22,808 bases of DNA from positions 1 through 22,808 of IMG/VR virus record IMGVR_UViG_3300042564_000082. One strand, given 5' to 3'. This DNA comes from a virus. The translations under genes and the position numbers were made by a program. The notes beneath the pieces were generated by a model. It was not told where the DNA came from and did no database searches. It saw only the letters and a program-made list of their open reading frames with translations. Of the stretch, positions 4,441-16,249 are shown in pieces (the first letter of the stretch is position 1; the number at the start of each line of letters is the position of its first letter).

Positions 4441-6929
4441 TGCATTTTTATACTAACGTATTTCCCTTTGGCGATCAGATGTTCGTACGTGGTTACGACA
4501 ATGGTCGCCCTTTTTCACATAAGGTGGAATTTTACCCAACACTGTACGTTCCTTCAAAGAAGCACGACAGTGATTGGCGCACACTTGATGGAACTGTAGT
4601 AGATGTGGTCAATCCTGGAGGTGTCAAAGATACCAAAGAGTTTGTCAAACGATACGAAGATGTCAAAGGGTTCGATATCTATGGTAACACTAATTACGTT
4701 TGCCAGTATATCAGCGATACTTATGAAAGTGATATCAAGTGGGACATGGATCTCATTAAGGTATACACGATTGACATCGAGACTAAAACCGAAAGTGGAT
4801 TCCCTGATATCAAAACTGCCAATGAAGATATCTTGCTAATCACAATCAAGGATCTTGCCAGTAAAAAGGTTATCACATTCGGAACTAAAACGTATGTGAA
4901 TAGTAGAGACGATGTAGTTTATCTGCATTGCGAAAGCGAAACGCATCTGTTGCGAGAGTTTGTAGCTTGGTGGCAACAGAACTATCCAGATATCATCACT
5001 GGTTGGAATACAGAATTCTTTGACGTGCCTTATCTTGTTCGACGTATTGAGCGTGAACTTGGCGAGCCTTATGCCAAGAAACTATCTCCATGGGGATACT
5101 ACAACGAACGCAAGACTTTCATTAAAGGTTCCGAAGAGATTCATTACGACATCCATGGTATTGCGCACTTGGACTTTCTTGCCCTGTACAAGAAGTTTAC
5201 TTACACCAAGCAAGAATCATATCGACTTGACTATATTGCTGAGCAAGAACTTGGCGATAAGAAGAAAGAAAACCCTGGAGAATCATTCAAGGATTTCTAC
5301 ACAAATCACTGGCAACAGTTTGTTGAATACAACATCCAAGACGTAGAGTTGGTCGACCGTATGGAAGACAAGATGCGCCTAATTGAACTGTGTTTGACTA
5401 TGGCGTACAACGCAAAGATTAATCTTGAAGATGTATTCTCACAGGTTCGTATGTGGGACGCCATCATCTATAACCACTTGCGTGAAAAGCGCATTGCTAT
5501 CCCCGCAAAGAATATCTTTGGTGGTAAAGATGCTCAATTTGAAGGTGCGTATGTTAAAGATCCGCTAATTGGTATGCACAAATGGGTTGCTTCATTCGAC
5601 TTGAACTCGCTGTATCCACATTTGATTATGCAATACAACATCAGTCCAGAGACTCTTACACACGAGAAGATTTCTTGTACAGTTGATCAGCTATTGAATC
5701 AAGAGATTGATACTTCATATGCTAAGAACAATGAGCTGTCCATGACTGCAAATGGGTGGTGCTATCGTAAAGACATCAAAGGGTTTATGCCTCAGTTGAT
5801 GGAAAACATGTACAAGGATCGATCTAAGTTTAAGAAACAGATGTTGAAGATTGAGCAAGAGTATCAAGATGATAAAAGCAAGAAGCACTTGCTAAAGGAT
5901 ATCTCCAGATTGAATAACCTTCAGATGGCTATGAAGATTGCATTGAACTCTGCTTATGGTGCTATGGGTAATCAATACTTTAGGTACTTTGATCTACGCA
6001 TGGCTGAGGGTATTACAACTTCTGGTCAGTTGTCTATTCGTTGGATGGCTAATGAGTTTAATGCATACATGAACAAGTTGCTTAAGACCAAGGACGCTGA
6101 TTACGTTATTGCCATTGATACTGACTCGATCTATTTGACACTTGAGCAACTGGTTGAAACCGTCGCAGCTGATAAGGATACGATAGGTAAGATCAAGTAC
6201 ATGGACAAGATCTGTGAAGAAATCTTCCAGCCTTTTATTGATAATACATATAAGAAGCTGTCTGAGTATATGAATGCTTACTCGCAAAAGATGATTATGA
6301 AGCGAGAGGTTCTGGCTGATAAAGGTATCTGGACTGCTAAGAAACGATACATTCTTAACGTGCATAACTCTGAGGGTGTTCAGTTTGCAAAGCCAAAGGT
6401 CAAGGTCATGGGTTTGGAAATGGTCAAGTCATCTACACCTTCAATCATTCGCAATAAACTTAAAGAATCTATTCCTGTTATTCTAGATGGTGATCAAAGT
6501 AAGCTGCATGATTTTATTGAAAAGTTTCGTAGTGAATATAAATCATTCTCAGTTGTAGAGATTGCATTCCCACGAGGTGTCAATGGAATAAAGACCTATG
6601 CAGGTTCACCAATCTATACAAAGGGAACTCCAATTCATGTTCGTGGTGCATTGCTACACAACCACTATCTAAAGAAGATGCAGTTGGATAAAGTTTACCA
6701 ACCTATTCGTGATGGAGATAAGATCAAGTTTGTTTATGTAAAGAAGCCAAATCCATTCCAAGAGGATGTGATTTCTTTCTCACAAACCTTACCTGAAGAG
6801 TTTGGTCTAAATAGATTCATTGATTATGATCTCCAATTCGAGAAAACATTTTTAGATGCACTACAAACCGTAATTGAGCCACTTGGTTGGCATACCGAAG
6901 AAAAAGCATCATTGGAGGATTTCTTTTGA
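4440..6929 (+). CDS. 43: Family B DNA polymerase, T4 gp43-like
   Basis: The replicative polymerase has 829 aa (T4 898). Proofreading domain: Exo I D112-I-E114, Exo II WNTEFFD with D195, Exo III YNIQD with D301. Polymerase domain: motif A D387-L-N-S-L-Y-P, motif B K499-x-x-x-N-S-A-Y-G (499-507), motif C D560-T-D562-S, and KKRY at about 650. All catalytic residues are present. The last residues, KASLEDFF, match the position and character of the T4/RB69 polymerase C-terminal peptide (KASLFDMFDF) that binds the gp45 sliding clamp. Codons of that peptide also supply the GGAGGA ribosome site of the next gene. The start overlaps the dexA stop (TAATG) with only a weak AAAGAA upstream, so coupling is likely. 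Confidence 0.98.
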   Translation: MHFYTNVFPFGDQMFVRGYDNGRPFSHKVEFYPTLYVPSKKHDSDWRTLDGTVVDVVNPGGVKDTKEFVKRYEDVKGFDIYGNTNYVCQYISDTYESDIKWDMDLIKVYTIDIETKTESGFPDIKTANEDILLITIKDLASKKVITFGTKTYVNSRDDVVYLHCESETHLLREFVAWWQQNYPDIITGWNTEFFDVPYLVRRIERELGEPYAKKLSPWGYYNERKTFIKGSEEIHYDIHGIAHLDFLALYKKFTYTKQESYRLDYIAEQELGDKKKENPGESFKDFYTNHWQQFVEYNIQDVELVDRMEDKMRLIELCLTMAYNAKINLEDVFSQVRMWDAIIYNHLREKRIAIPAKNIFGGKDAQFEGAYVKDPLIGMHKWVASFDLNSLYPHLIMQYNISPETLTHEKISCTVDQLLNQEIDTSYAKNNELSMTANGWCYRKDIKGFMPQLMENMYKDRSKFKKQMLKIEQEYQDDKSKKHLLKDISRLNNLQMAMKIALNSAYGAMGNQYFRYFDLRMAEGITTSGQLSIRWMANEFNAYMNKLLKTKDADYVIAIDTDSIYLTLEQLVETVAADKDTIGKIKYMDKICEEIFQPFIDNTYKKLSEYMNAYSQKMIMKREVLADKGIWTAKKRYILNVHNSEGVQFAKPKVKVMGLEMVKSSTPSIIRNKLKESIPVILDGDQSKLHDFIEKFRSEYKSFSVVEIAFPRGVNGIKTYAGSPIYTKGTPIHVRGALLHNHYLKKMQLDKVYQPIRDGDKIKFVYVKKPNPFQEDVISFSQTLPEEFGLNRFIDYDLQFEKTFLDALQTVIEPLGWHTEEKASLEDFF
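6914..6919 (+). promoter_or_regulatory. Shine-Dalgarno that fixes a TTG start
   Basis: GGAGGA lies 6 bases before TTG 6926, inside the codons for the polymerase C-terminal Leu-Glu-Asp. It chooses the TTG (overlapping the polymerase TGA as TTGA) over the frame's earlier ATG at 6887 and later ATG near 6950. Confidence 0.7.
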
Positions 6930-7489
6930 AAAACTTAGCTGACTATGTAATGATTGTTGATCATGTATTGACAGAAGACTTTTGTAACTCATTGATTGAA
7001 CGATTCGAGAAACAAGAACAAAAACTAACTAATAACACATGGGGTAATCATATGATGAACTTCCATGAGTTAAACATTACAAAACATGTAGAAGAGTCTA
7101 AGTTGTTTTACGATCTAACACAAGATCTTTTTAAGTTTTACATTGATAAAAATAATGTAGAATTTATGCCTAGTAAAATTGGGTACGAAGATGCAAGAAT
7201 GAAACGATACGATCCAAATGGTATTGACCAGTTCGGTTGGCATACTGATGTTGGGGATTATGCATCTGCAAAAAGATTTCTTGTTATGTTCTATTACCTA
7301 AACGATGTTGAAGAAGGTGGACAAACCGTATTCAACGATGTTACATACGATGATAAAACAAACTTGACTATAAATGCTAGACGAGGTAGAATAGTAATAT
7401 TCCCTCCTATGTGGATGTACCCACACAAGGGTATGCCTCCAATTAGTAACTCTAAGTATATTATATCCACATACTGCCATTACCTATAA
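6926..7489 (+). CDS. 2-oxoglutarate/Fe(II)-dependent oxygenase, prolyl 4-hydroxylase type
   Basis: The protein starts at TTG 6926 (187 aa), chosen because GGAGGA sits 6 bases upstream and the start overlaps the polymerase stop. The double-stranded beta-helix signature is complete: H106-x-D108 in FGWHTD, a second half with FYYLNDVEEGGQT (122-134) and GRIVIFPP, the distal iron ligand H167 in YPHKG, and K177 as the likely 2OG carboxylate contact. Family members hydroxylate proline or other side chains using O2 and 2-oxoglutarate. The target here is unknown. Such oxygenases are common in marine T4-like phages. It is a different branch from the TET/JBP-like enzyme downstream, and I see no reason to assign it to DNA. 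Confidence 0.9.
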   Translation: MKNLADYVMIVDHVLTEDFCNSLIERFEKQEQKLTNNTWGNHMMNFHELNITKHVEESKLFYDLTQDLFKFYIDKNNVEFMPSKIGYEDARMKRYDPNGIDQFGWHTDVGDYASAKRFLVMFYYLNDVEEGGQTVFNDVTYDDKTNLTINARRGRIVIFPPMWMYPHKGMPPISNSKYIISTYCHYL

Positions 7490-9154: not shown

Positions 9155-10564
9155 ATGCGTATTGAACAAGCCATTCTGTCTAATCTTATTCATAATGAGG
9201 AGTATTGCCGAAAGGTAATTCCTTACCTCAAGAAAGAGTACTTTGCTGATCGCAAGGATTCGACAATTGCTGCTCTGTTGATTTCTTTCTTTGAGAAGTA
9301 TAACAAACCTGCATCATCAGAGATTATTGCCATTGAGGTAACTAATCTTCCAGGGCTAACTGATAAAGAAGTTCCAGAATTGCATGAGTATGCGAAATCA
9401 CTCGTGTGTGATGTGACGACCAATCCTGATTGGTTACTAGAGAATACTGAAAAGTTTTGTAAAGACCGAGCAGTATACAATGCGATTCTGGCTTCGATTA
9501 AAATTATTGATGGTAAAGATAAAGTGCACAACCAAGATGCGATTCCATCCATCTTATCTGATGCACTTGCTGTAAGTTTTGATAGCCACATTGGTCATGA
9601 TTACATAGACGATGCTAATGAGCGTTTCGAATTCTATCATAGAATTGAAGAAAAGGTTGCTTTTGATCTTGAGATGTTTAACCTTATCACTAAGGGTGGA
9701 CTTTCCAGGAAAACTCTGAACATTGCACTTGCTGGTACTGGTGTTGGTAAGTCTCTGTTTATGTGTCACGTTTCTGCATCTAGTTTGATGCAGGGTAAGA
9801 ATGTTCTTTACATTACCATGGAAATGGCAGAAGAACGTATTGCTGAACGTATTGATGCAAACCTATTGAATATTACCATGGATGAATTGAAGGTCATCGA
9901 TAAAGATATCTTTGATTCTAAAATGGATAAATTGGCTAAGAAAACTCAAGGCAAGCTAATCGTCAAAGAATATCCAACTGCATCTGCCCATGCTGGTCAC
10001 TTTCGTGCTTTGCTTGAAGAATTGAAGATGAAGCGTGACTTCCGACCAGATATTATCATGATTGACTATCTAAACATCTGTTCTTCTCAGCGTGTCAAGC
10101 AAGGTGGCTCTGTAAATTCTTATACATATATTAAGTCGATTGCTGAAGAGTTACGTGGTCTTGCTGTAGAGTATAATGTGCCGATTCTGTCTGCAACCCA
10201 AACTACTCGTAGTGGTTTTACCAATAGTGATCCAGGGTTGGAAGATACGTCAGAATCATTTGGTTTACCAGCTACTGCTGACTTTATGTTTGCTTTGGTA
10301 TCCAATGAAGAACTTGAACAACTGAATCAAATCATTGTCAAACAACTGAAGAATCGTTACAACGATCCAGGATTTTATAAACGATTCGTTGTTGGTATTG
10401 ATAGATCAAAGATGAAGTTATATGATGTAGAAGCCTCTGCTCAACAGAACTTGTCAGACGCTGGTCAATCTTATAGTATGAAAGAAGACAAGCCTCTCTT
10501 CGATCAAAGTGATTTTGGCAAACGACTACCTAGTAATACTGGGTTCGCTGATTTTAAATTTTAA
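9155..10564 (+). CDS. 41: Replicative DNA helicase, DnaB/gp41-like
   Basis: The protein (469 aa; T4 gp41 475) has an N-terminal helical domain (MRIEQAILSNLIHNEEYC) and a RecA-type motor. Walker A is GTGVGKS (194-200), the catalytic glutamate is E223 in YITMEMAEE, and Walker B is IIMIDYL (300-306). The SATQTTRSG stretch and the adjacent FG-x-P-x-TADF segment match the DnaB-type arginine-finger/sensor region. It is the hexameric 5'-3' helicase that unwinds the fork and organises priming. The C-terminus ends GFADFKF. The ribosome site is weak (AAGGG, 11 bases upstream). The base-modification genes follow within 10 bases. Confidence 0.96.
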   Translation: MRIEQAILSNLIHNEEYCRKVIPYLKKEYFADRKDSTIAALLISFFEKYNKPASSEIIAIEVTNLPGLTDKEVPELHEYAKSLVCDVTTNPDWLLENTEKFCKDRAVYNAILASIKIIDGKDKVHNQDAIPSILSDALAVSFDSHIGHDYIDDANERFEFYHRIEEKVAFDLEMFNLITKGGLSRKTLNIALAGTGVGKSLFMCHVSASSLMQGKNVLYITMEMAEERIAERIDANLLNITMDELKVIDKDIFDSKMDKLAKKTQGKLIVKEYPTASAHAGHFRALLEELKMKRDFRPDIIMIDYLNICSSQRVKQGGSVNSYTYIKSIAEELRGLAVEYNVPILSATQTTRSGFTNSDPGLEDTSESFGLPATADFMFALVSNEELEQLNQIIVKQLKNRYNDPGFYKRFVVGIDRSKMKLYDVEASAQQNLSDAGQSYSMKEDKPLFDQSDFGKRLPSNTGFADFKF

Positions 10565-10573
10565 GGAGTAGAT

Positions 10574-11875
10574 ATGGTTAAGGTTATTGTTGCTGATAGA
10601 AAGTATAACAGCGAACATTTGCTAGGGCAGTTTGTTGATGAGAGTCACTATGACTTGTTGGTTGAAGAGGATTGTGACGTTTACATGCCACTACCTGTTG
10701 GTGACGACGAAACATATCCAGAAGATCGTATCGTCTTTAAGTTCCGCAAGAACTACTTTTCCAAAGAACAGCAAGATGCAGCATACGCTGGCTTGCGTGA
10801 AGCTGCAATTGAAACACAGAATCGTGGACTAGCTGCAGGACCACGTGCAGATAAACTTGGTAATCGTGAGTGGGTTACTGAGTACGAGTACGAAATTGTA
10901 GACTACTTCTTGAAGCCTACTGAGAATCTTTTTGGTGAAGATCCAATCGAAGAAATTCGTAAGAAGTACGGCAATAAAAAAGATTCAATCTCTAATCGTG
11001 CCAACGTTTGGTCTATTGAACGTGTTAAGAAAGAGAAGTTTAAATTCGAAGACTGGGTTAACAAAACTAAACTGTTACCCCAAGAAGAACAACAGGCAAG
11101 TGCAGCGCATGTAGCTGATAAGTTAATCTGCGCTACTACGTATGCTAACTCTGTAAACTCTGGCATCGCTGGATGGTTCGATCGTTATCCACGTATTCCT
11201 TATGGTCGTGCCACTGCATATACTTCAAAGAATCCAGAGAAGTTTGCCATGGCATTCCCATTCTTACAAAATCTTGCCAAGGGTTTTAAAGATCTTCTTC
11301 CATGGAGATACAATAACCAAATGGAAGCTGCAAAGAAACTTGATCCTGCATTCTTAGTTCCTGGAACTCCATTCACTACAGTAACTGTCAATAAGACTTT
11401 CCGTACAGCTGCGCATTACGATGCTGGTGACTTGACTTCTGGTTTGTCTAACTTGCTGACATTGTCCAATGATGGTAACTACTCTGGTGGTTATCTTATT
11501 GCACCAGAGTATCGTATTGCTGTAAACGTTCGTCCAGGTGACTTGCTGTTGATTAACAACCATGAAGTTATGCATGGTAATACACCTATTGTTTGCCAAG
11601 AAGGTTCTGAACGCATTTCCCTAGTTGTTTACTTTAGAGAGAAAATGCTAGAGTTGGGAACTAAAGAGTACGAAGAATGTCGCTTTGACTTTGTTGAGTC
11701 TCGCAGACTGAATAAAGAACATAAAGAATGGCGTCAACTATGGAACGGTGTTTCACCTAGCATGTGGGACAGCGAAGAATGGTATGACTTCTGTGAGCAA
11801 AAACTAGGTCGTGATACACTTGAGAAGTATCATCCCGACTCTGTAAAATCAAACTCATTGGAAGGATTCTTTTAA
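10574..11875 (+). CDS. TET/JBP-family 2OG/Fe(II) dioxygenase acting on DNA bases (predicted)
   Basis: The protein has 433 aa. The C-terminal half carries the JBP-like block: TVNKTFRTAAH281-x-D283-AGDL, then SGGYLIAPEY, VRPGDLLLINNH330-x-x-x-H334-GN, and ER347-ISLVVYFREKM. H281 and D283 with H334 (or H330) are the likely iron ligands, and R347 the 2OG contact. In kinetoplastid JBP proteins this enzyme hydroxylates thymine in DNA; in TET it oxidises 5-methylcytosine. No cytosine methyltransferase is in the window, so thymine is the simpler substrate, though this is unproven. The N-terminal 200 residues are not recognised. The last residues SNSLEGFF closely match the polymerase end KASLEDFF, a likely clamp-binding peptide. 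A strong AAGGAG lies 5 bases before the ATG. It heads the modification block. Confidence 0.85.
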   Translation: MVKVIVADRKYNSEHLLGQFVDESHYDLLVEEDCDVYMPLPVGDDETYPEDRIVFKFRKNYFSKEQQDAAYAGLREAAIETQNRGLAAGPRADKLGNREWVTEYEYEIVDYFLKPTENLFGEDPIEEIRKKYGNKKDSISNRANVWSIERVKKEKFKFEDWVNKTKLLPQEEQQASAAHVADKLICATTYANSVNSGIAGWFDRYPRIPYGRATAYTSKNPEKFAMAFPFLQNLAKGFKDLLPWRYNNQMEAAKKLDPAFLVPGTPFTTVTVNKTFRTAAHYDAGDLTSGLSNLLTLSNDGNYSGGYLIAPEYRIAVNVRPGDLLLINNHEVMHGNTPIVCQEGSERISLVVYFREKMLELGTKEYEECRFDFVESRRLNKEHKEWRQLWNGVSPSMWDSEEWYDFCEQKLGRDTLEKYHPDSVKSNSLEGFF

Positions 11876-12573
11876 TGTGTTCTATTATTGGTGCGATCAT
11901 CCGTAACCCTACGAGTGATCACTTTGATATGATACGACGTGTGTTCCATGAGTCTAAGATTCGTGGAATGCATGCTACAGGAATGTCTATATTATTTGAT
12001 AATAAAATTATGACGTTCAAAGAACCTGTCTCTGCAGACAAGTTTGTTCATTTAGATTCTTTGGAGGAAATGGTAAATCATGACGGTACTTTATATCTTA
12101 TTGGTCATTGTCGTTACAGCACTAGCGATCTGGAATATAATCAACCCCTAGCAAACGAGGAATGTTCTATCGTACACAACGGTGTTGTTACACAAGAACT
12201 ACCTGAGAACTGGAAGACTTTGTTTCCTGAATATGTTTGTGAAACTAAAAATGATAGTGAATTGATTTTACACTCACCTTCACCATTAGAAGAATTCCCT
12301 GATTCTTCTATTGCTGCATGTGAGTTATGGGCTGATAAAAAACTAATTACATATCGTAATGGTAAGCGTCCATTATATTTGACTTCTATGCTAGATGGAT
12401 GTATAATTACTTCTACAACTAATATTGCAAGACGAGCAGGAGTCGATGGTGTTACTATGGAAGTTCCCATGAACACTTATATGACTATTGATTCTAGTCT
12501 TACATTCGATATGCAAATAGTAAAGACAAATAAACGAGACTTACAAAGGGTTGATTATGAATTATCCGTCTAA
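11875..12573 (+). CDS. Class II glutamine amidotransferase domain protein
   Basis: The protein (232 aa) is a stand-alone Ntn-hydrolase amidotransferase. After Met removal Cys2 (M-C-S-I-I-G-A-I) becomes the N-terminal nucleophile. The other class II blocks are RGMHATG (30-36), GHCRYST (77-83), VHNG (100-103) and NDSE (126-129), in the same order as GlmS and PurF glutaminase domains. It should release ammonia from glutamine. No synthase domain is attached, so the ammonia must go to a partner; the amidoligase that overlaps it by 17 bases is the obvious one. It starts in the TET/JBP stop (TAATG), with GAAGGA 8 bases upstream. Confidence 0.88.
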   Translation: MCSIIGAIIRNPTSDHFDMIRRVFHESKIRGMHATGMSILFDNKIMTFKEPVSADKFVHLDSLEEMVNHDGTLYLIGHCRYSTSDLEYNQPLANEECSIVHNGVVTQELPENWKTLFPEYVCETKNDSELILHSPSPLEEFPDSSIAACELWADKKLITYRNGKRPLYLTSMLDGCIITSTTNIARRAGVDGVTMEVPMNTYMTIDSSLTFDMQIVKTNKRDLQRVDYELSV

Positions 12574-13432
12574 CAAATACACATGGGGCTATGAGATTGA
12601 ATGGGGTGATGTAGATCGTAGACTAGTCGTTCCCGAACATCTTGGTAAGTGGGAATTCGCTGAAACTGATATTGTAAACATTCATGAACCTTTTAAATAT
12701 ATCGCTTGTGATCCTCTTGGTACTGATCCATACATGGGTGGTGAGATTAACACTAAGCCAACTAATACTTGGCAAGAACAAGTGGATCGAGTCATGGAGA
12801 TACATAGCTTCTTTGCTGATGCTGGCAATAAGCCTTCTGCTTCTTGTGTAAACCATGGTCACCTTCATGTGTTTGTTCCTGGTCTTAAAGATGATGTAGC
12901 TACACTTAAGAAGTTAGTCTCTTATATCAAAGCCAATCAAACAGATACTATTGAAGCATGCTATGGTTTCTACGAAGCATCTCAAATGAAATCATGCAAG
13001 GGTGCTAAGATGTATCTCAAGTATGACGGCGGACGAGAAATGCCAGAATATATGTGTGACAATATCGTCAATCTGGCAACAGACTTTGAACACTTTATCA
13101 AGTTGCATGCTGCTGGCAAAGATGGTGTATCAATGGGTCGTCCATTCCGATACGCCATCAATACATACTGCATGAAGCATACTGGTACTATCGAGTTCCG
13201 TTGTTTCCGCTCAACAACTAAGCGTGACGAGATGGAAGCCCAGTTCCGTTTTGCCGAGAAGTTTATTGAAGCTGCATTGAACGATGGACCAAGCGTCAAA
13301 GAAATCCTTGCTGCAGATAACTATAAGTTCCCTCCATTCGTATGGGATCTTAATGAGTATGTTGGTTGGGAAAAGACAAAGTGGGATAAAGAACGTGGTA
13401 ACAAACAACGCGAATACCTTGCTGTTGCGTAA
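12557..13432 (+). CDS. Amidoligase of the COOH-NH2 ligase (glutamine synthetase-like) family
   Basis: The start is placed at ATG 12557 (291 aa), with AAAGGG at 12545-12550 six bases upstream. The blocks match the phage amidoligase pattern: GYEIEW (11-16), GGEINTKPT (61-69), VNHGHLHVFVPG (98-109, the G-x-H-x-H type), and HTGTIEFRCF (209-218). The acidic and histidine residues would bind metal-ATP. Family members form amide bonds between a carboxylate and an amine, as in peptide or amino-acid tagging. With the amidotransferase before it and an acetyltransferase after it, it may build an amide on a small molecule or on an amino acid attached to a base. Function is inferred from the fold and neighbours, not shown. 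Confidence 0.82.
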   Translation: MNYPSNKYTWGYEIEWGDVDRRLVVPEHLGKWEFAETDIVNIHEPFKYIACDPLGTDPYMGGEINTKPTNTWQEQVDRVMEIHSFFADAGNKPSASCVNHGHLHVFVPGLKDDVATLKKLVSYIKANQTDTIEACYGFYEASQMKSCKGAKMYLKYDGGREMPEYMCDNIVNLATDFEHFIKLHAAGKDGVSMGRPFRYAINTYCMKHTGTIEFRCFRSTTKRDEMEAQFRFAEKFIEAALNDGPSVKEILAADNYKFPPFVWDLNEYVGWEKTKWDKERGNKQREYLAVA

Positions 13433-13961
13433 ATGCACCCGAGACGAATTCGTAGCAGCAATCACTGATGATAAAGCTGACGGTTTCGCCAAGACATTCA
13501 GAGCCAAAGCAGATATGCAGGATCAATGGGATGAATGTCTTGGTGCCTTTAATGCTGACGGTGAGCTCATGGGTGCAATCATTACCACTCTTGGAAAGAC
13601 TAATCCCCGTGTGGCAAACCTACAGCTGCTACATACTTTTGCTAAACATAGACGTAAGGGTATAGGAAAGCAATTGACCTTAGCTTCTTATAACGATGTC
13701 GTTTCCCGTGGATCAGTATACTTTAGAGTGTCTGCGGAGCCTGATGCTGTAGTGTTTTATGAGAGTATTGGGTTTAAGTTCTGGGGTTTACAAAAGTCTG
13801 GATGTAGTTTGAGTATGTTTAAAGTTGTTGGTAGTATCAATGAAGGACTTTACAACGATGCTGATCCAATCTTACAACGAGCATTATACAGTGGACGCAA
13901 GGGAAGTCTTGCATCGTCATATAAAGAAACACAGCCAGTTGACTTAGCATCTTTTATATAA
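13419..13961 (+). CDS. GNAT-family N-acetyltransferase
   Basis: From TTG 13419 the protein has 180 aa and starts MLLRKCTRDEFVAAI, as GNAT domains usually do. The acetyl-CoA loop is RRKGIGK (78-84), preceded by the NLQLLHTFAKH strand, and the domain closes with FYESIGFKFWG (113-123). It transfers an acetyl group to an amine; the acceptor is unknown. The start is uncertain: the frame has no ATG after the amidoligase stop at 13432, and other in-frame starts are GTG 13395 and ATG 13353 and 13359. All of these overlap the amidoligase and none has a good ribosome site. It ends two bases before the next gene. Confidence 0.82.
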   Translation: MLLRKCTRDEFVAAITDDKADGFAKTFRAKADMQDQWDECLGAFNADGELMGAIITTLGKTNPRVANLQLLHTFAKHRRKGIGKQLTLASYNDVVSRGSVYFRVSAEPDAVVFYESIGFKFWGLQKSGCSLSMFKVVGSINEGLYNDADPILQRALYSGRKGSLASSYKETQPVDLASFI

Positions 13962-13963
13962 TT

Positions 13964-14983
13964 ATGGATTACAGACTAAAAGAAAATCGTCGTGAAGCAT
14001 TCATCCGCTGGTACGCATGGTCATTGAAGTATGATGACTGCGATCCAGCTGTATGGGCTACTAACTATCTCAACAAACGCTACGAGCACAACGATGAGCA
14101 ACGACTCTGGCTTTGCTGGCTCTATGGAAATACATACCACTTACCAACTGCATGGGTTCTGATGAACGAGTTCCCTGACTTTGAGTTGGCAACAGTTGAT
14201 CGTATGCAGCAGTGGAACACTACTAATAACAAGCGACTGCGATATCAAACAGATACAAAGTGGAACAAAGGTCACTTACCTACCATGTTTGCTTCATATC
14301 AGAAGTTTATTGGTGGCAAATCTCAACGTGAAGTTATGGAGGCTCATTATGGAGACAACGAGGAAAAGTCATTTGATAATTTGTGGGAAAGTGCTAAGAC
14401 ACAGCTGCATAAATTTGGTCGTTATTCTACTTGGTTTTATCTTCAGCATCTTAAGCATACCGCTGATGTTCGGATTAGCCCTACTAGTCTCATGCTTGAC
14501 GATTATGATGGGTCTCGCTCTCACCGTAATGGGTTGCATCTTGCCCTCGGCGAAGATGACAAGTACGATCAGAAACTGGACAGAGCAGCTTATGTATCTC
14601 TTGAAAGTCAAGCCAGAGAAATCTTAGAAGAAACCATCAGAAGATTCCCTGAGTTAAAGAATCAAGTTGACTTCTTTACAATGGAAACCTGCCTGTGTTC
14701 TTTCAAGAAGATCTTTAGAGAAAAGCATGGTCGTTATCTTGGTTACTATCTTGATCGTCAAGCTGAAGAAGTTATGCAATGCGAGAAAGATGGTTGGTAC
14801 GGTATCGATTGGGATGTTCTATGGCAAGCTAGAAACGAAACTATTGACCTTCGCTTAGACCATAAACGAGGAATCAATAAAGAAAAGTATCCTAACTTTA
14901 TTAGATCAGGTAGAATAGAAAACTTAGACTGGTTCTTTGATGATGAAGAGCCTCAACATATTGGATTGGAGATGTTTGGATGA
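13964..14983 (+). CDS. Predicted amino acid:DNA transferase (alpha-glutamyl/putrescinyl-thymine pyrophosphorylase-like)
   Basis: The protein has 339 aa and is helical. The front block is MDYRLKENRREAFIRWY and then DEQRLWLCWLYGNTYHLPTA (44-63), followed by a MNEFPDF segment (67-73). This is the pattern I recall for phage proteins annotated as amino acid:DNA transferase or alpha-glutamyl/putrescinyl-thymine pyrophosphorylase. In phages SP10, phiW-14, M6 and ViI, related enzymes replace the (pyro)phosphate on 5-hydroxymethyluracil in DNA with an amine. Which clade this belongs to cannot be decided by eye. Aromatic NLDWFF and terminal GLEMFG near the C-terminus may be further clamp-type peptides, but this is weak. 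The following kinase starts in its stop codon (ATGA), consistent with the two acting in sequence. Confidence 0.7.
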   Translation: MDYRLKENRREAFIRWYAWSLKYDDCDPAVWATNYLNKRYEHNDEQRLWLCWLYGNTYHLPTAWVLMNEFPDFELATVDRMQQWNTTNNKRLRYQTDTKWNKGHLPTMFASYQKFIGGKSQREVMEAHYGDNEEKSFDNLWESAKTQLHKFGRYSTWFYLQHLKHTADVRISPTSLMLDDYDGSRSHRNGLHLALGEDDKYDQKLDRAAYVSLESQAREILEETIRRFPELKNQVDFFTMETCLCSFKKIFREKHGRYLGYYLDRQAEEVMQCEKDGWYGIDWDVLWQARNETIDLRLDHKRGINKEKYPNFIRSGRIENLDWFFDDEEPQHIGLEMFG

Positions 14984-15519
14984 AAAAGATTATTGCTGTT
15001 GGTGGTCAACCAGGAACTGGTAAAACTACTCTTTTCCGTAAGTTTATCGATAACTACGATTGGAATAAGTGCGAGCCTAAGAAACTACTCAATGCTATGT
15101 ATTGCGAAGAGATCGATACTTATGTCTTAGGTAAGTACGAGGACGGAGAAACCTTTGCTGGAACTGATCGCTTATCAATGGCAGTCCAACCAGCAGCGCA
15201 AGAGTTTGTAGCTGGTACTAAGTGCAATGTCCTATTCGAAGGCGATAGAATCTTCAATCAATCCTTTTTGGAGTTCTGCATGGCTCTGCCCAACAGAGAC
15301 TTGCAAGTTGTATATCTAAAGGTTCCTGATACTATGCTTAAGGAACGATATGCCGAACGTGGCTCTGATCAGTCGGAGGTTTTCCTAAAAGGCAGGGCGA
15401 CTAAATATAGTAATCTGCTTTCAAATTTTGAATTGATGTCCTATATTACTGAGTTTGCAAACACTAACTTAGAGGAGCAAGCGAAGGTTCTAGCGTTTCT
15501 GGATTCCCATCTAGCATAG
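14980..15519 (+). CDS. P-loop kinase, predicted hydroxymethyl-base DNA kinase
   Basis: The protein (179 aa) has Walker A GQPGTGKTT (9-17) at the N-terminus, TDR (62-64), NVLFEGDR (83-90) as the second-strand acidic motif, and a lid region KERYAERGSDQSEVFLKGR. Overall it resembles small nucleotide/base kinases. In thymidine-hypermodifying phages, a P-loop kinase phosphorylates 5-hydroxymethyl-dU in DNA so that the transferase can displace the phosphate; the direct overlap with the transferase gene supports the same role here. Alternatives are a nucleotide or metabolite kinase, which cannot be excluded by eye. GGAG lies 8 bases before the ATG. Confidence 0.8.
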   Translation: MKKIIAVGGQPGTGKTTLFRKFIDNYDWNKCEPKKLLNAMYCEEIDTYVLGKYEDGETFAGTDRLSMAVQPAAQEFVAGTKCNVLFEGDRIFNQSFLEFCMALPNRDLQVVYLKVPDTMLKERYAERGSDQSEVFLKGRATKYSNLLSNFELMSYITEFANTNLEEQAKVLAFLDSHLA

Positions 15520-15541: not shown

Positions 15542-16249
15542 ATGAAATTCCTAGAAGAAGCTAATTTCAATTGGATGGATATGCTCAATTTTCATGAGCG
15601 TCCATTTAGGGCTAAATTCATCCCCGCAAAAGTTTGGAAAGATCTAGATCGTTATAAGAATGATGAACGGGGTCTTTCCAATTATTTTAAAAAGTGGCGA
15701 ACTCGGCTAGAGTTTACGCCTGAGATATCTAAAGCCAAAATATACGAGAAGTATATTGCTGTTGGCGGAGAATACGACCCTGATGTGCGTCAATGTGTTC
15801 TACAGATTCGAACTATATACTACGATACATTCCCCTTTACTCCTCCTACATGGGACAGGTTTAAGTATAAACTTATACAGGTTCTTATGCATGAGATCAT
15901 TCACTTTATGCAGTTTGATCGTCGTGGAGATGAGTGGAGTAACTACATAGTTCCATATAAAAAAATTGGTAAACAACAAGTAGATGATGAGCGACAATAT
16001 CTATCTGGTTTTGATGAGATCCAAGCCTATGCTCATTGCGTATGGATAGATTATAGATCTTTTCGTCCAAAATTTTCCATAGAAGATCTGCTTGCTCGTT
16101 CAAACACAAGTCACGATTCCAGCACCCTACGATATTTTCTTAAAACCTTCAACTACGACTATCGTAACAATGAAGCTATCCCTAAGATTATTCAGCAAAT
16201 AGGTAAATGGGAGCGTAAGTATCATCGTGTGCTGAAGAAGCCTAAATAA
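15542..16249 (+). CDS. Putative zinc metallopeptidase with HExxH motif
   Basis: The protein (235 aa) contains H117-E-I-I-H121 and, downstream, FDE159-IQAYA, a spacing that fits a gluzincin-type third ligand. No signal peptide or membrane segment is seen, so it would act inside the cell or on virion proteins; substrates are unknown. Head maturation or host protein cleavage are possible, but T4 uses a different protease (gp21), so no role is assigned. It lies 22 bases after the kinase and its stop overlaps the CTAAATA motif. It is either the last gene of the early/middle block or part of the late one. Confidence 0.7.
   Translation: MKFLEEANFNWMDMLNFHERPFRAKFIPAKVWKDLDRYKNDERGLSNYFKKWRTRLEFTPEISKAKIYEKYIAVGGEYDPDVRQCVLQIRTIYYDTFPFTPPTWDRFKYKLIQVLMHEIIHFMQFDRRGDEWSNYIVPYKKIGKQQVDDERQYLSGFDEIQAYAHCVWIDYRSFRPKFSIEDLLARSNTSHDSSTLRYFLKTFNYDYRNNEAIPKIIQQIGKWERKYHRVLKKPK

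What the first reader, a model, noticed from the sequence alone, without database searches (positions are those of the whole stretch)
10574..15519. Six-gene block that reads as a DNA-base hypermodification pathway
Seen: a TET/JBP-type dioxygenase (H281, D283, H334, R347), a class II amidotransferase (Cys2), an amidoligase (GYEIEW, GTIEFR), a GNAT (RRKGIGK), a protein resembling amino acid:DNA transferases and a P-loop kinase (GQPGTGKTT), within 5 kb, one strand, mostly overlapping. Known: in phages SP10, phiW-14, M6 and ViI, a P-loop kinase and a pyrophosphorylase/transferase convert 5-hydroxymethyluracil in DNA into amine-linked thymines. Comparative work (Iyer and colleagues) predicted that phage TET/JBP enzymes supply hydroxymethyl pyrimidines for such pathways. 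Inferred: the dioxygenase makes the hydroxymethyl base after replication instead of through a nucleotide pool, the kinase and transferase install an amine or amino acid, and the amidoligase set extends or caps it. The end product is not known to me.
Basis: partly seen in the sequence, partly recalled or inferred. Interest (0 to 1): 0.88.

Follow-up and report, generated by a model that had tools for sequence, protein, structure and literature searches.

The report
Phage pathway that decorates thymine bases
A block of six genes in an uncultured T4-like virus of water bacteria most likely oxidises thymine in the virus's own finished DNA, attaches an amino acid or amine to it and then caps that side chain, a disguise against host defences that uses a different first step from the well-studied phages and two enzymes not yet described in such pathways.

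Summary
Tet_JBP (8e-25), ADDT amino acid:DNA transferase (2.4e-23), Ploopntkinase3 (4e-11) and GATase_6 (3e-7) pass Pfam cut-offs. The amidoligase does not, but its model (pLDDT 92) has the glutamine-synthetase/YbdK fold (Z about 10). The ADDT model matches PaMx11 gp46, the 5-phosphomethyl-dU glycinyltransferase (Z 18.4).

The block fills one genomic slot in many aquatic T4-like phages. Among 41 distinct contigs, 27 of 27 ADDT-type slots carry TET, GAT, ADDT and kinase; 14 put other cassettes behind the same TET. Four 162-174 kb relatives, one 99.9% identical to the window, lack a C5-cytosine methylase and a thymidylate-synthase-type hydroxymethylase, but have TET and ThyX. ADDT phages ViI, M6 and phiW-14 have the hydroxymethylase and no TET. 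So TET probably makes 5-hydroxymethyluracil from thymine in finished DNA.

The TET-ADDT-kinase core is already on record (phage Tonitrus). New are the T4-like setting, the cassette exchange and the GATase/amidoligase tailoring, supported by an amidoligase inside the M6-like locus of phage Simon. All chemistry is inferred; the end product is unknown.

The parts
10574..11875 (+). TET/JBP-type 2-oxoglutarate/Fe(II) dioxygenase; inferred: oxidises thymine in DNA to 5-hydroxymethyluracil
   Evidence: Pfam Tet_JBP 8.1e-25; H281/D283/H334/R347, conserved at 97% or more in homologues; TET2 alignment; AAGGAG upstream of the ATG
11875..12573 (+). stand-alone class II glutamine amidotransferase (glutaminase) domain; inferred ammonia supply or gamma-glutamyl hydrolysis
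   Evidence: GATase_6 3.2e-7; GlmS glutaminase alignment; Cys2, R78, H99-N100-G101, D124 at 97% or more in 127 homologues
12557..13432 (+). amidoligase (glutamine synthetase-like carboxylate-amine ligase); ORF also open from TTG 12551
   Evidence: Amidoligase_2 0.0036, below cut-off, homologue above cut-off; model pLDDT 92; YbdK/GS/GCL fold Z about 10; invariant E15, E17, H104, H106, E215, R217
13419..13961 (+). GNAT acyltransferase (start probably TTG 13419; the longer ORF from 13284 overlaps the amidoligase)
   Evidence: Acetyltransf_10 1.2e-9; start codons, homologue starts
13964..14983 (+). ADDT, amino acid:DNA transferase; inferred: displaces the phosphate of 5-phosphomethyl-dU with an amino acid or amine
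   Evidence: ADDT 2.4e-23; model pLDDT 92; PaMx11 gp46 glycinyltransferase 8z2n, Z 18.4 over 253 residues
14980..15519 (+). P-loop kinase (Ploopntkinase3); inferred hydroxymethyluracil DNA kinase
   Evidence: PF18751 3.9e-11; family profile reaches the M6 HMUDK-family kinase at 3.5e-5; shared Walker A, G-x-D and EG motifs
9155..10564 (+). T4 gp41-like DnaB helicase: left border of the slot
   Evidence: DnaB_C 1.1e-19; flanks the slot in relatives
15542..16249 (+). conserved ORF of unknown function with an HEIIH motif: right border of the slot, kept whatever cassette is present, so probably not part of the pathway
   Evidence: slot tables; no Pfam match

Best explanation
The block is a post-replicative thymine hypermodification pathway of a T4-like phage. 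Step 1 (inferred): TET oxidises the methyl group of thymine in DNA to 5-hydroxymethyluracil. Step 2 (inferred): the P-loop kinase phosphorylates it to 5-phosphomethyl-dU. Step 3 (inferred): ADDT displaces the phosphate with the amine of an amino acid, probably a small one such as glycine, leaving a free carboxylate. Step 4 (inferred, uncertain): the glutamine synthetase-like amidoligase activates a carboxylate with ATP and forms an amide, with the GATase most simply delivering ammonia from glutamine; the GNAT acylates a remaining amine. The bulky, charge-altered thymine should protect the phage genome from host nucleases. Shown here: family membership of five proteins (the sixth, the amidoligase, by predicted fold), conservation as a unit, and absence of the alternative sources of a hydroxymethyl pyrimidine in near-identical and related genomes.
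For: Family matches. The ADDT model matches the 5-PmdU glycinyltransferase gp46 of PaMx11, Z 18.4, with DNA glycosylases next at about 9 or less. 27 of 27 ADDT-type slots on distinct contigs hold TET+GAT+ADDT+KIN. No PF00145 in 16 relatives; no PF00303 in G001-G004; ThyX present with an RHRSFSFQEFSQRY motif. ADDT phages have either a PF00303 hydroxymethylase (ViI, M6, phiW-14, VPALA, Cygsa01, PWKp5, phage Simon) or TET (G001-G004, Cr30, VioletZ). In phage Simon an amidoligase lies between ADDT and the kinase of an M6-like locus that also has the hydroxymethylase. Other cassettes in the same slot bring further tailoring enzymes: radical SAM, LMW phosphatase, Trp halogenase. Precedent: 5hmdU DNA kinase followed by transferase (PMC6449724); amide ligase acting on a phage DNA base (PMC12783734).
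Against: No chemistry measured. The window's phage is uncultured. The kinase matches Ploopntkinase3 rather than the HMUDK family of M6 and shares only remote similarity with it. Methylophilales phage Melnitz pairs a related kinase and a TET with a HhaI-type C5 methylase and no detected ADDT, so this kinase family may also serve cytosine. The class II GATase is universal in ADDT cassettes of this slot even where no amidoligase exists, so the ammonia-to-amidoligase pairing is a guess.
Confidence: 0.82

Rival explanations
1. The target is cytosine: TET oxidises 5-methylcytosine to 5-hydroxymethylcytosine, which the kinase and ADDT then decorate.
For: Characterised phage TETs act on 5mC (from memory, Burke 2021, not held). 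Melnitz phage has a HhaI-type C5 methylase, a TET and a kinase of this family together. TAGT, known from hydroxymethyl-dC phages (PMC13390438), occupies the same slot in relatives.
Against: No C5-methylase (PF00145) in any of 16 relatives, including four of 162-174 kb. The ADDT fold match acts on 5-phosphomethyl-deoxyuridine, and ADDT otherwise occurs with thymidylate-synthase-type hydroxymethylases in thymidine-modifying phages.
Confidence: 0.09
2. The GATase, amidoligase and GNAT form a separate metabolite, peptide or 7-deazaguanine pathway that merely neighbours a TET-kinase-ADDT core.
For: LUZ24-like phages carry amidoligase, GATase_6 and ATP-grasp genes near each other, with no hypermodification role described (PMC3890496). 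The amidoligase homologue of Vibrio phage 2.275.O lies beside QueF-, QueC- and GTP cyclohydrolase-type genes.
Against: No QueC in G001-G004 while the Vibrio control rings. GATase is present in every ADDT-type cassette of the slot and was not found in the 14 other cassettes. Phage Simon has the amidoligase inside an M6-like thymidine hypermodification locus, without such a GATase detected in that stretch.
Confidence: 0.15
3. GATase feeds ammonia straight to ADDT, so the first product is 5-aminomethyl-dU, and the amidoligase then joins a carboxylate metabolite to that amine. This is a sub-variant of the best explanation, so its confidence is not exclusive of it.
For: GATase tracks ADDT rather than amidoligase; class II catalytic residues conserved.
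Against: The matched enzyme gp46 is a glycinyltransferase by its PDB title; no ammonia-using ADDT is known to me.
Confidence: 0.2
4. Hydroxymethyl-dUTP is made in the nucleotide pool and TET has another role.
For: ADDT phages of the ViI and M6 kind are thought to use the pool route (PMC6449724).
Against: No PF00303 protein in G001-G004, only ThyX with its canonical motif.
Confidence: 0.02

Closest known systems
Thymidine hypermodification loci of phages ViI, M6, PaMx11, phiW-14
   Same: ADDT transferase (PF18724 found in ViI, M6, phiW-14) and a P-loop kinase (M6); same inferred intermediate 5-phosphomethyl-dU; variable tailoring enzymes
   Different: ViI, M6 and phiW-14 have a thymidylate-synthase-type hydroxymethylase and no TET; here TET and no hydroxymethylase; GATase and amidoligase tailoring
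TET-ADDT-kinase loci of actinophages (Rhodococcus phage Tonitrus, PMC11955845; mycobacteriophage VioletZ gp2-gp4)
   Same: Same core triad; kinase of the same Pfam family (VioletZ gp4 1.7e-73)
   Different: No GATase or amidoligase found in the VioletZ stretch examined; unrelated phage group; a ParB-like gene is part of the Tonitrus locus
Caulobacter phage Cr30 (cultured T4-like)
   Same: TET 45% identical, ADDT, and kinase 36% identical within about 9 kb
   Different: Genes not adjacent, no GATase or amidoligase detected there, has a thymidylate synthase scoring 373 bits
CmoA/CmoX/CmoY 5-carboxymethylcytosine system of Synechococcus phage S-B43 (PMC12783734)
   Same: ATP-dependent amide bond formation on a phage DNA base; some ligases there carry a glutaminase domain
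   Different: Cytosine; asparagine-synthetase-type AMP-forming ligase rather than glutamine synthetase fold; carboxyl comes from carboxy-SAM
Base J pathway (JBP dioxygenase plus glucosyltransferase, kinetoplastids)
   Same: JBP/TET oxidation of thymine in DNA as the first step (known biology)
   Different: Decoration by kinase and amino acid transfer; the GT-type cassettes of sister phages are the closer analogues

Membership tests
TET/JBP dioxygenases | profile match above curated cut-off | tested here: met
   Tet_JBP 87.4 bits against 34.9
TET/JBP dioxygenases | HxD...H iron triad and C-terminal Arg for 2-oxoglutarate | tested here: met
   H281, D283, H334, R347; equivalents conserved in 150 homologues
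TET/JBP dioxygenases | oxidises 5-methylpyrimidine in DNA | not testable with these tools
   needs enzyme assay
ADDT amino acid:DNA transferases | profile match above cut-off | tested here: met
   PF18724 83.5 bits against 26.2
ADDT amino acid:DNA transferases | fold of a solved member | tested here: met
   8z2n/8z2m PaMx11 gp46 Z 18.4 and 17.4, 253-256 residues
ADDT amino acid:DNA transferases | transfers an amino acid to phosphorylated hydroxymethyl-dU | not testable with these tools
   needs enzyme assay
5-hydroxymethyluracil DNA kinases | member of HMUDK family PF18748 | tested here: not met
   Pfam places it in Ploopntkinase3 PF18751; only a remote relative of M6's PF18748 kinase. Filed as 'works like', not as a member
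Class II glutamine amidotransferases | N-terminal Cys nucleophile after Met1 and R, HNG, D glutaminase residues | tested here: met
Amidoligase_2 / glutamine synthetase-fold ligases | Pfam cut-off of Amidoligase_2 | tested here: not met
   17.7 against 22 bits; a slot homologue passes with 23.3
Amidoligase_2 / glutamine synthetase-fold ligases | glutamine synthetase/GCL fold with conserved acidic, His and Arg residues | tested here: met
   Z about 10 to YbdK, GS, GCL; invariant E15, E17, H104, H106, E215, R217
Phage thymidine hypermodification systems | source of hydroxymethyluracil plus kinase plus ADDT | tested here: met
   TET in place of hydroxymethylase
Phage thymidine hypermodification systems | modified thymidine in virion DNA | not testable with these tools
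   needs LC-MS
Phage TET plus C5-methylase cytosine hypermodification systems | phage-encoded C5-cytosine methyltransferase | tested here: not met
   0 of 16 relatives, including G001, which is 99.94% identical to the window over 21 kb
7-deazaguanine DNA modification | QueC-type preQ0 synthesis | tested here: not met
   no PF06508 in G001-G004; Vibrio 2.275.O control positive

The most novel reading that the evidence does not exclude
A TET enzyme starts a thymine pathway that ends in an amide: an amino acid attached through its amine by ADDT, its carboxylate then amidated by a glutamine synthetase-like ligase with ammonia from a stand-alone glutaminase (or the reverse, an acid joined to an aminomethyl group). 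That would be an undescribed DNA base, spread through abundant aquatic T4-like phages and exchanged with glycosylation cassettes behind the same TET.
Probability: 0.4. Interest if true: 0.8.

Novelty: new variant of a known kind. Interest (0 to 1): 0.64.

Why it matters
Thymidine hypermodification has been worked out in phages that make hydroxymethyl-dUTP in the nucleotide pool. Here the same transferase family is fed by a TET/JBP enzyme acting on finished DNA, so a subset of thymines could be chosen and no dTTP replacement is needed. It extends the TET route from actinophages to T4-like phages common in water metagenomes, names two tailoring enzymes (class II glutaminase and glutamine synthetase-like amidoligase) not described for thymine as far as I could find, and shows decoration modules being exchanged behind one TET. 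Each step gives a mass that LC-MS can look for, and cultured phage Cr30 has the core genes.

Tried and rejected
Cytosine route: rejected as the main reading because no PF00145 methylase was found in 16 relatives and a strict motif scan of the loci fetched by then found none. Pool route: rejected. 7-deazaguanine route suggested by the Vibrio 2.275.O neighbourhood: rejected; the TGT search is uninformative because the Vibrio record gave no hit either. GATase and amidoligase as one obligatory pair: rejected, since GATase occurs without amidoligase in 35 of 77 ADDT-type slots, some contigs counted more than once. The PDB sequence searches with the ADDT and amidoligase profiles found nothing credible; only fold comparison did. 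Promoter and terminator scans were at chance level. The DLP6 paper's restriction digests give no usable result in the text. Key papers (Iyer 2013, Lee 2022, Burke 2021, Wen 2024) are not held, so statements about them rest on memory or on how held papers cite them. The near-identity search of the phage collection found only short matches covering 1%.
Full report
What is there. The window is a 22.8-kb piece of a T4-like phage: DNA ligase (1663), family B polymerase (4440), UvsX (7751) and gp41-like helicase (9155) precede the block. It is 99.94% identical over 21.3 kb to a 168-kb IMG/VR contig (G001), which I use as the nearest thing to its full genome. Six genes lie at 10574-15519 on one strand. 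Pfam puts five above their curated cut-offs: Tet_JBP 8.1e-25, GATase_6 3.2e-7, Acetyltransf_10 1.2e-9, ADDT 2.4e-23, Ploopntkinase3 3.9e-11; the amidoligase scores 0.0036, below cut-off. Two starts need moving: amidoligase to ATG 12557 and GNAT probably to TTG 13419.

Structure evidence. The amidoligase model from a 35-sequence alignment has pLDDT 92. Foldseek and VIA-align list YbdK, glutamine synthetases and glutamate-cysteine ligases, Z about 10 over roughly 170-230 residues. Invariant E15, E17, H104, H106, E215 and R217 fit a metal and ATP site of that superfamily (inference). The ADDT model (pLDDT 92) matches the 5-phosphomethyl-2'-deoxyuridine glycinyltransferase gp46 of Pseudomonas phage PaMx11 at Z 18.4 over 253 residues; the next matches are helix-hairpin-helix DNA glycosylases at Z about 9 or less. 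A near-identical relative of the M6 ADDT is in the PDB (25qc) and is close to gp46. E241, C245 and K248 of the window protein are shared by 8 or 9 of 9 ADDT proteins from different phages.

The slot. Hundreds of relatives exist in IMG/VR. The genes fill the slot between gp41 and a conserved ORF (15542). In 41 distinct contigs where the slot can be read, 27 are of the ADDT type and all 27 contain TET, GATase, ADDT and kinase; 14 have none of the last three and carry other genes behind TET. In the larger table of 91 slots, in which some contigs are counted more than once, 77 are ADDT type; amidoligase is in 42 of these, always with the window-type GNAT or with an LMW phosphatase-like gene, and the other 35 have instead a different GNAT-like gene (families). 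Further optional genes are a radical SAM protein, a small unknown protein, a ParB-like protein, and once a tryptophan halogenase family protein. The 14 other slots hold TAGT (TET-associated glycosyltransferase), GT1 with or without a cytidylyltransferase, or unidentified genes. On the TET tree the two kinds switch at least 6 times, at least 3 of them forced by well-supported branches. So one TET is combined with exchangeable decoration cassettes.

Which base. TET needs a 5-methylpyrimidine, which means thymine, or 5-methylcytosine made by a methylase. No PF00145 methylase was found in 16 relatives, among them four of 162-174 kb, all four with a T4 portal gene. These four also lack any PF00303 protein, the family of the known dUMP and dCMP hydroxymethylases, and have ThyX with its canonical motif. 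Among ADDT-bearing phages the two sources are complementary: ViI, M6, phiW-14, VPALA, Cygsa01, PWKp5 and phage Simon have a PF00303 protein and no TET; G001-G004, Cr30 and VioletZ have TET (VioletZ weakly, below the Pfam cut-off) and no such hydroxymethylase; Cr30's PF00303 hit scores 373 bits and is read as an ordinary thymidylate synthase. I conclude that TET here probably oxidises thymine in finished DNA. The limits of this argument: contigs may be incomplete, a host methylase could supply 5-methylcytosine, and Melnitz phage shows a TET and a related kinase next to a C5 methylase.

How it would work. TET makes 5-hydroxymethyluracil; the kinase makes 5-phosphomethyl-dU; ADDT displaces the phosphate with the amine of an amino acid. 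A kinase followed by transferases is the accepted order for pool-fed phages (PMC6449724), and the PDB title of gp46 names the substrate. The added amino acid keeps a carboxylate. A glutamine synthetase-like ligase next to a glutaminase most simply turns it into an amide; GNAT would acylate an amine. Amide formation on a phage DNA base by a different ligase type is known for cytosine, and some of those ligases carry a glutaminase domain (PMC12783734). Independent support that the amidoligase belongs to thymine modification: in phage Simon, an M6-like phage, ADDT, a flavin oxidoreductase, amidoligase, LMW phosphatase, HMUDK-like kinase and the hydroxymethylase lie in one run. The order of steps 3-4, the donor and the end product are unknown; because GATase occurs without amidoligase, ammonia may go to ADDT instead.

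What is known and what is new. TET with aGPT-PPlase2/ADDT and a hydroxymethyluracil kinase has been named as a thymidine hypermodification system in Rhodococcus phage Tonitrus (PMC11955845), and VioletZ has the same triad. New here, as far as the held literature shows, are the setting in abundant T4-like phages, the amidoligase/GATase tailoring, the TET versus hydroxymethylase complementarity, and the cassette exchange. I therefore rate it a new variant of a known kind.

Noticed in passing
L059:4015-4815, L084:8025-9792, L015:2685-4031: Close relatives of this phage carry glycosyltransferases (TAGT; GT1 with a cytidylyltransferase) directly behind the same TET gene, a possible base J-like or 5hmC-like cassette.
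   Followed up: partly
L178:10139-11614: A tryptophan halogenase family protein (7.9e-93) sits inside an ADDT-type cassette, between ADDT and the kinase.
   Followed up: no
L165:11020-12450 and L072: Radical SAM proteins, up to two per cassette, between ADDT and kinase, mostly in amidoligase-less variants.
   Followed up: partly
L006:4852-12531 (phage Simon): Unannotated M6-like hypermodification locus with amidoligase and LMW phosphatase where M6 has other tailoring genes.
   Followed up: yes
L274:4010-8090 (Melnitz-3): HhaI-type C5 methylase, TET, ParB/GIY-like protein and a kinase of the window's family: probably a cytosine counterpart.
   Followed up: partly
L102:4542-5837, L240:1-798, L274:6269-7552: ParB-like genes recur beside TET/kinase loci in unrelated phages; role unknown.
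   Followed up: no
phages collection: TET homologues are annotated 'SNF2 DNA repair protein' and kinase homologues 'terminase small subunit' or 'adenylate kinase' in public phage records.
   Followed up: no
L005:7905-11518: Vibrio jumbo phage 2.275.O has an amidoligase of this family beside QueF- and QueC-type genes, a possible amide-modified 7-deazaguanine.
   Followed up: partly
6887-7489: A second 2OG-Fe(II) oxygenase (2OG-FeII_Oxy_3, 8.6e-11) lies just behind the DNA polymerase; small 2OG oxygenases also appear inside some cassettes (L205, L219, L026).
   Followed up: no
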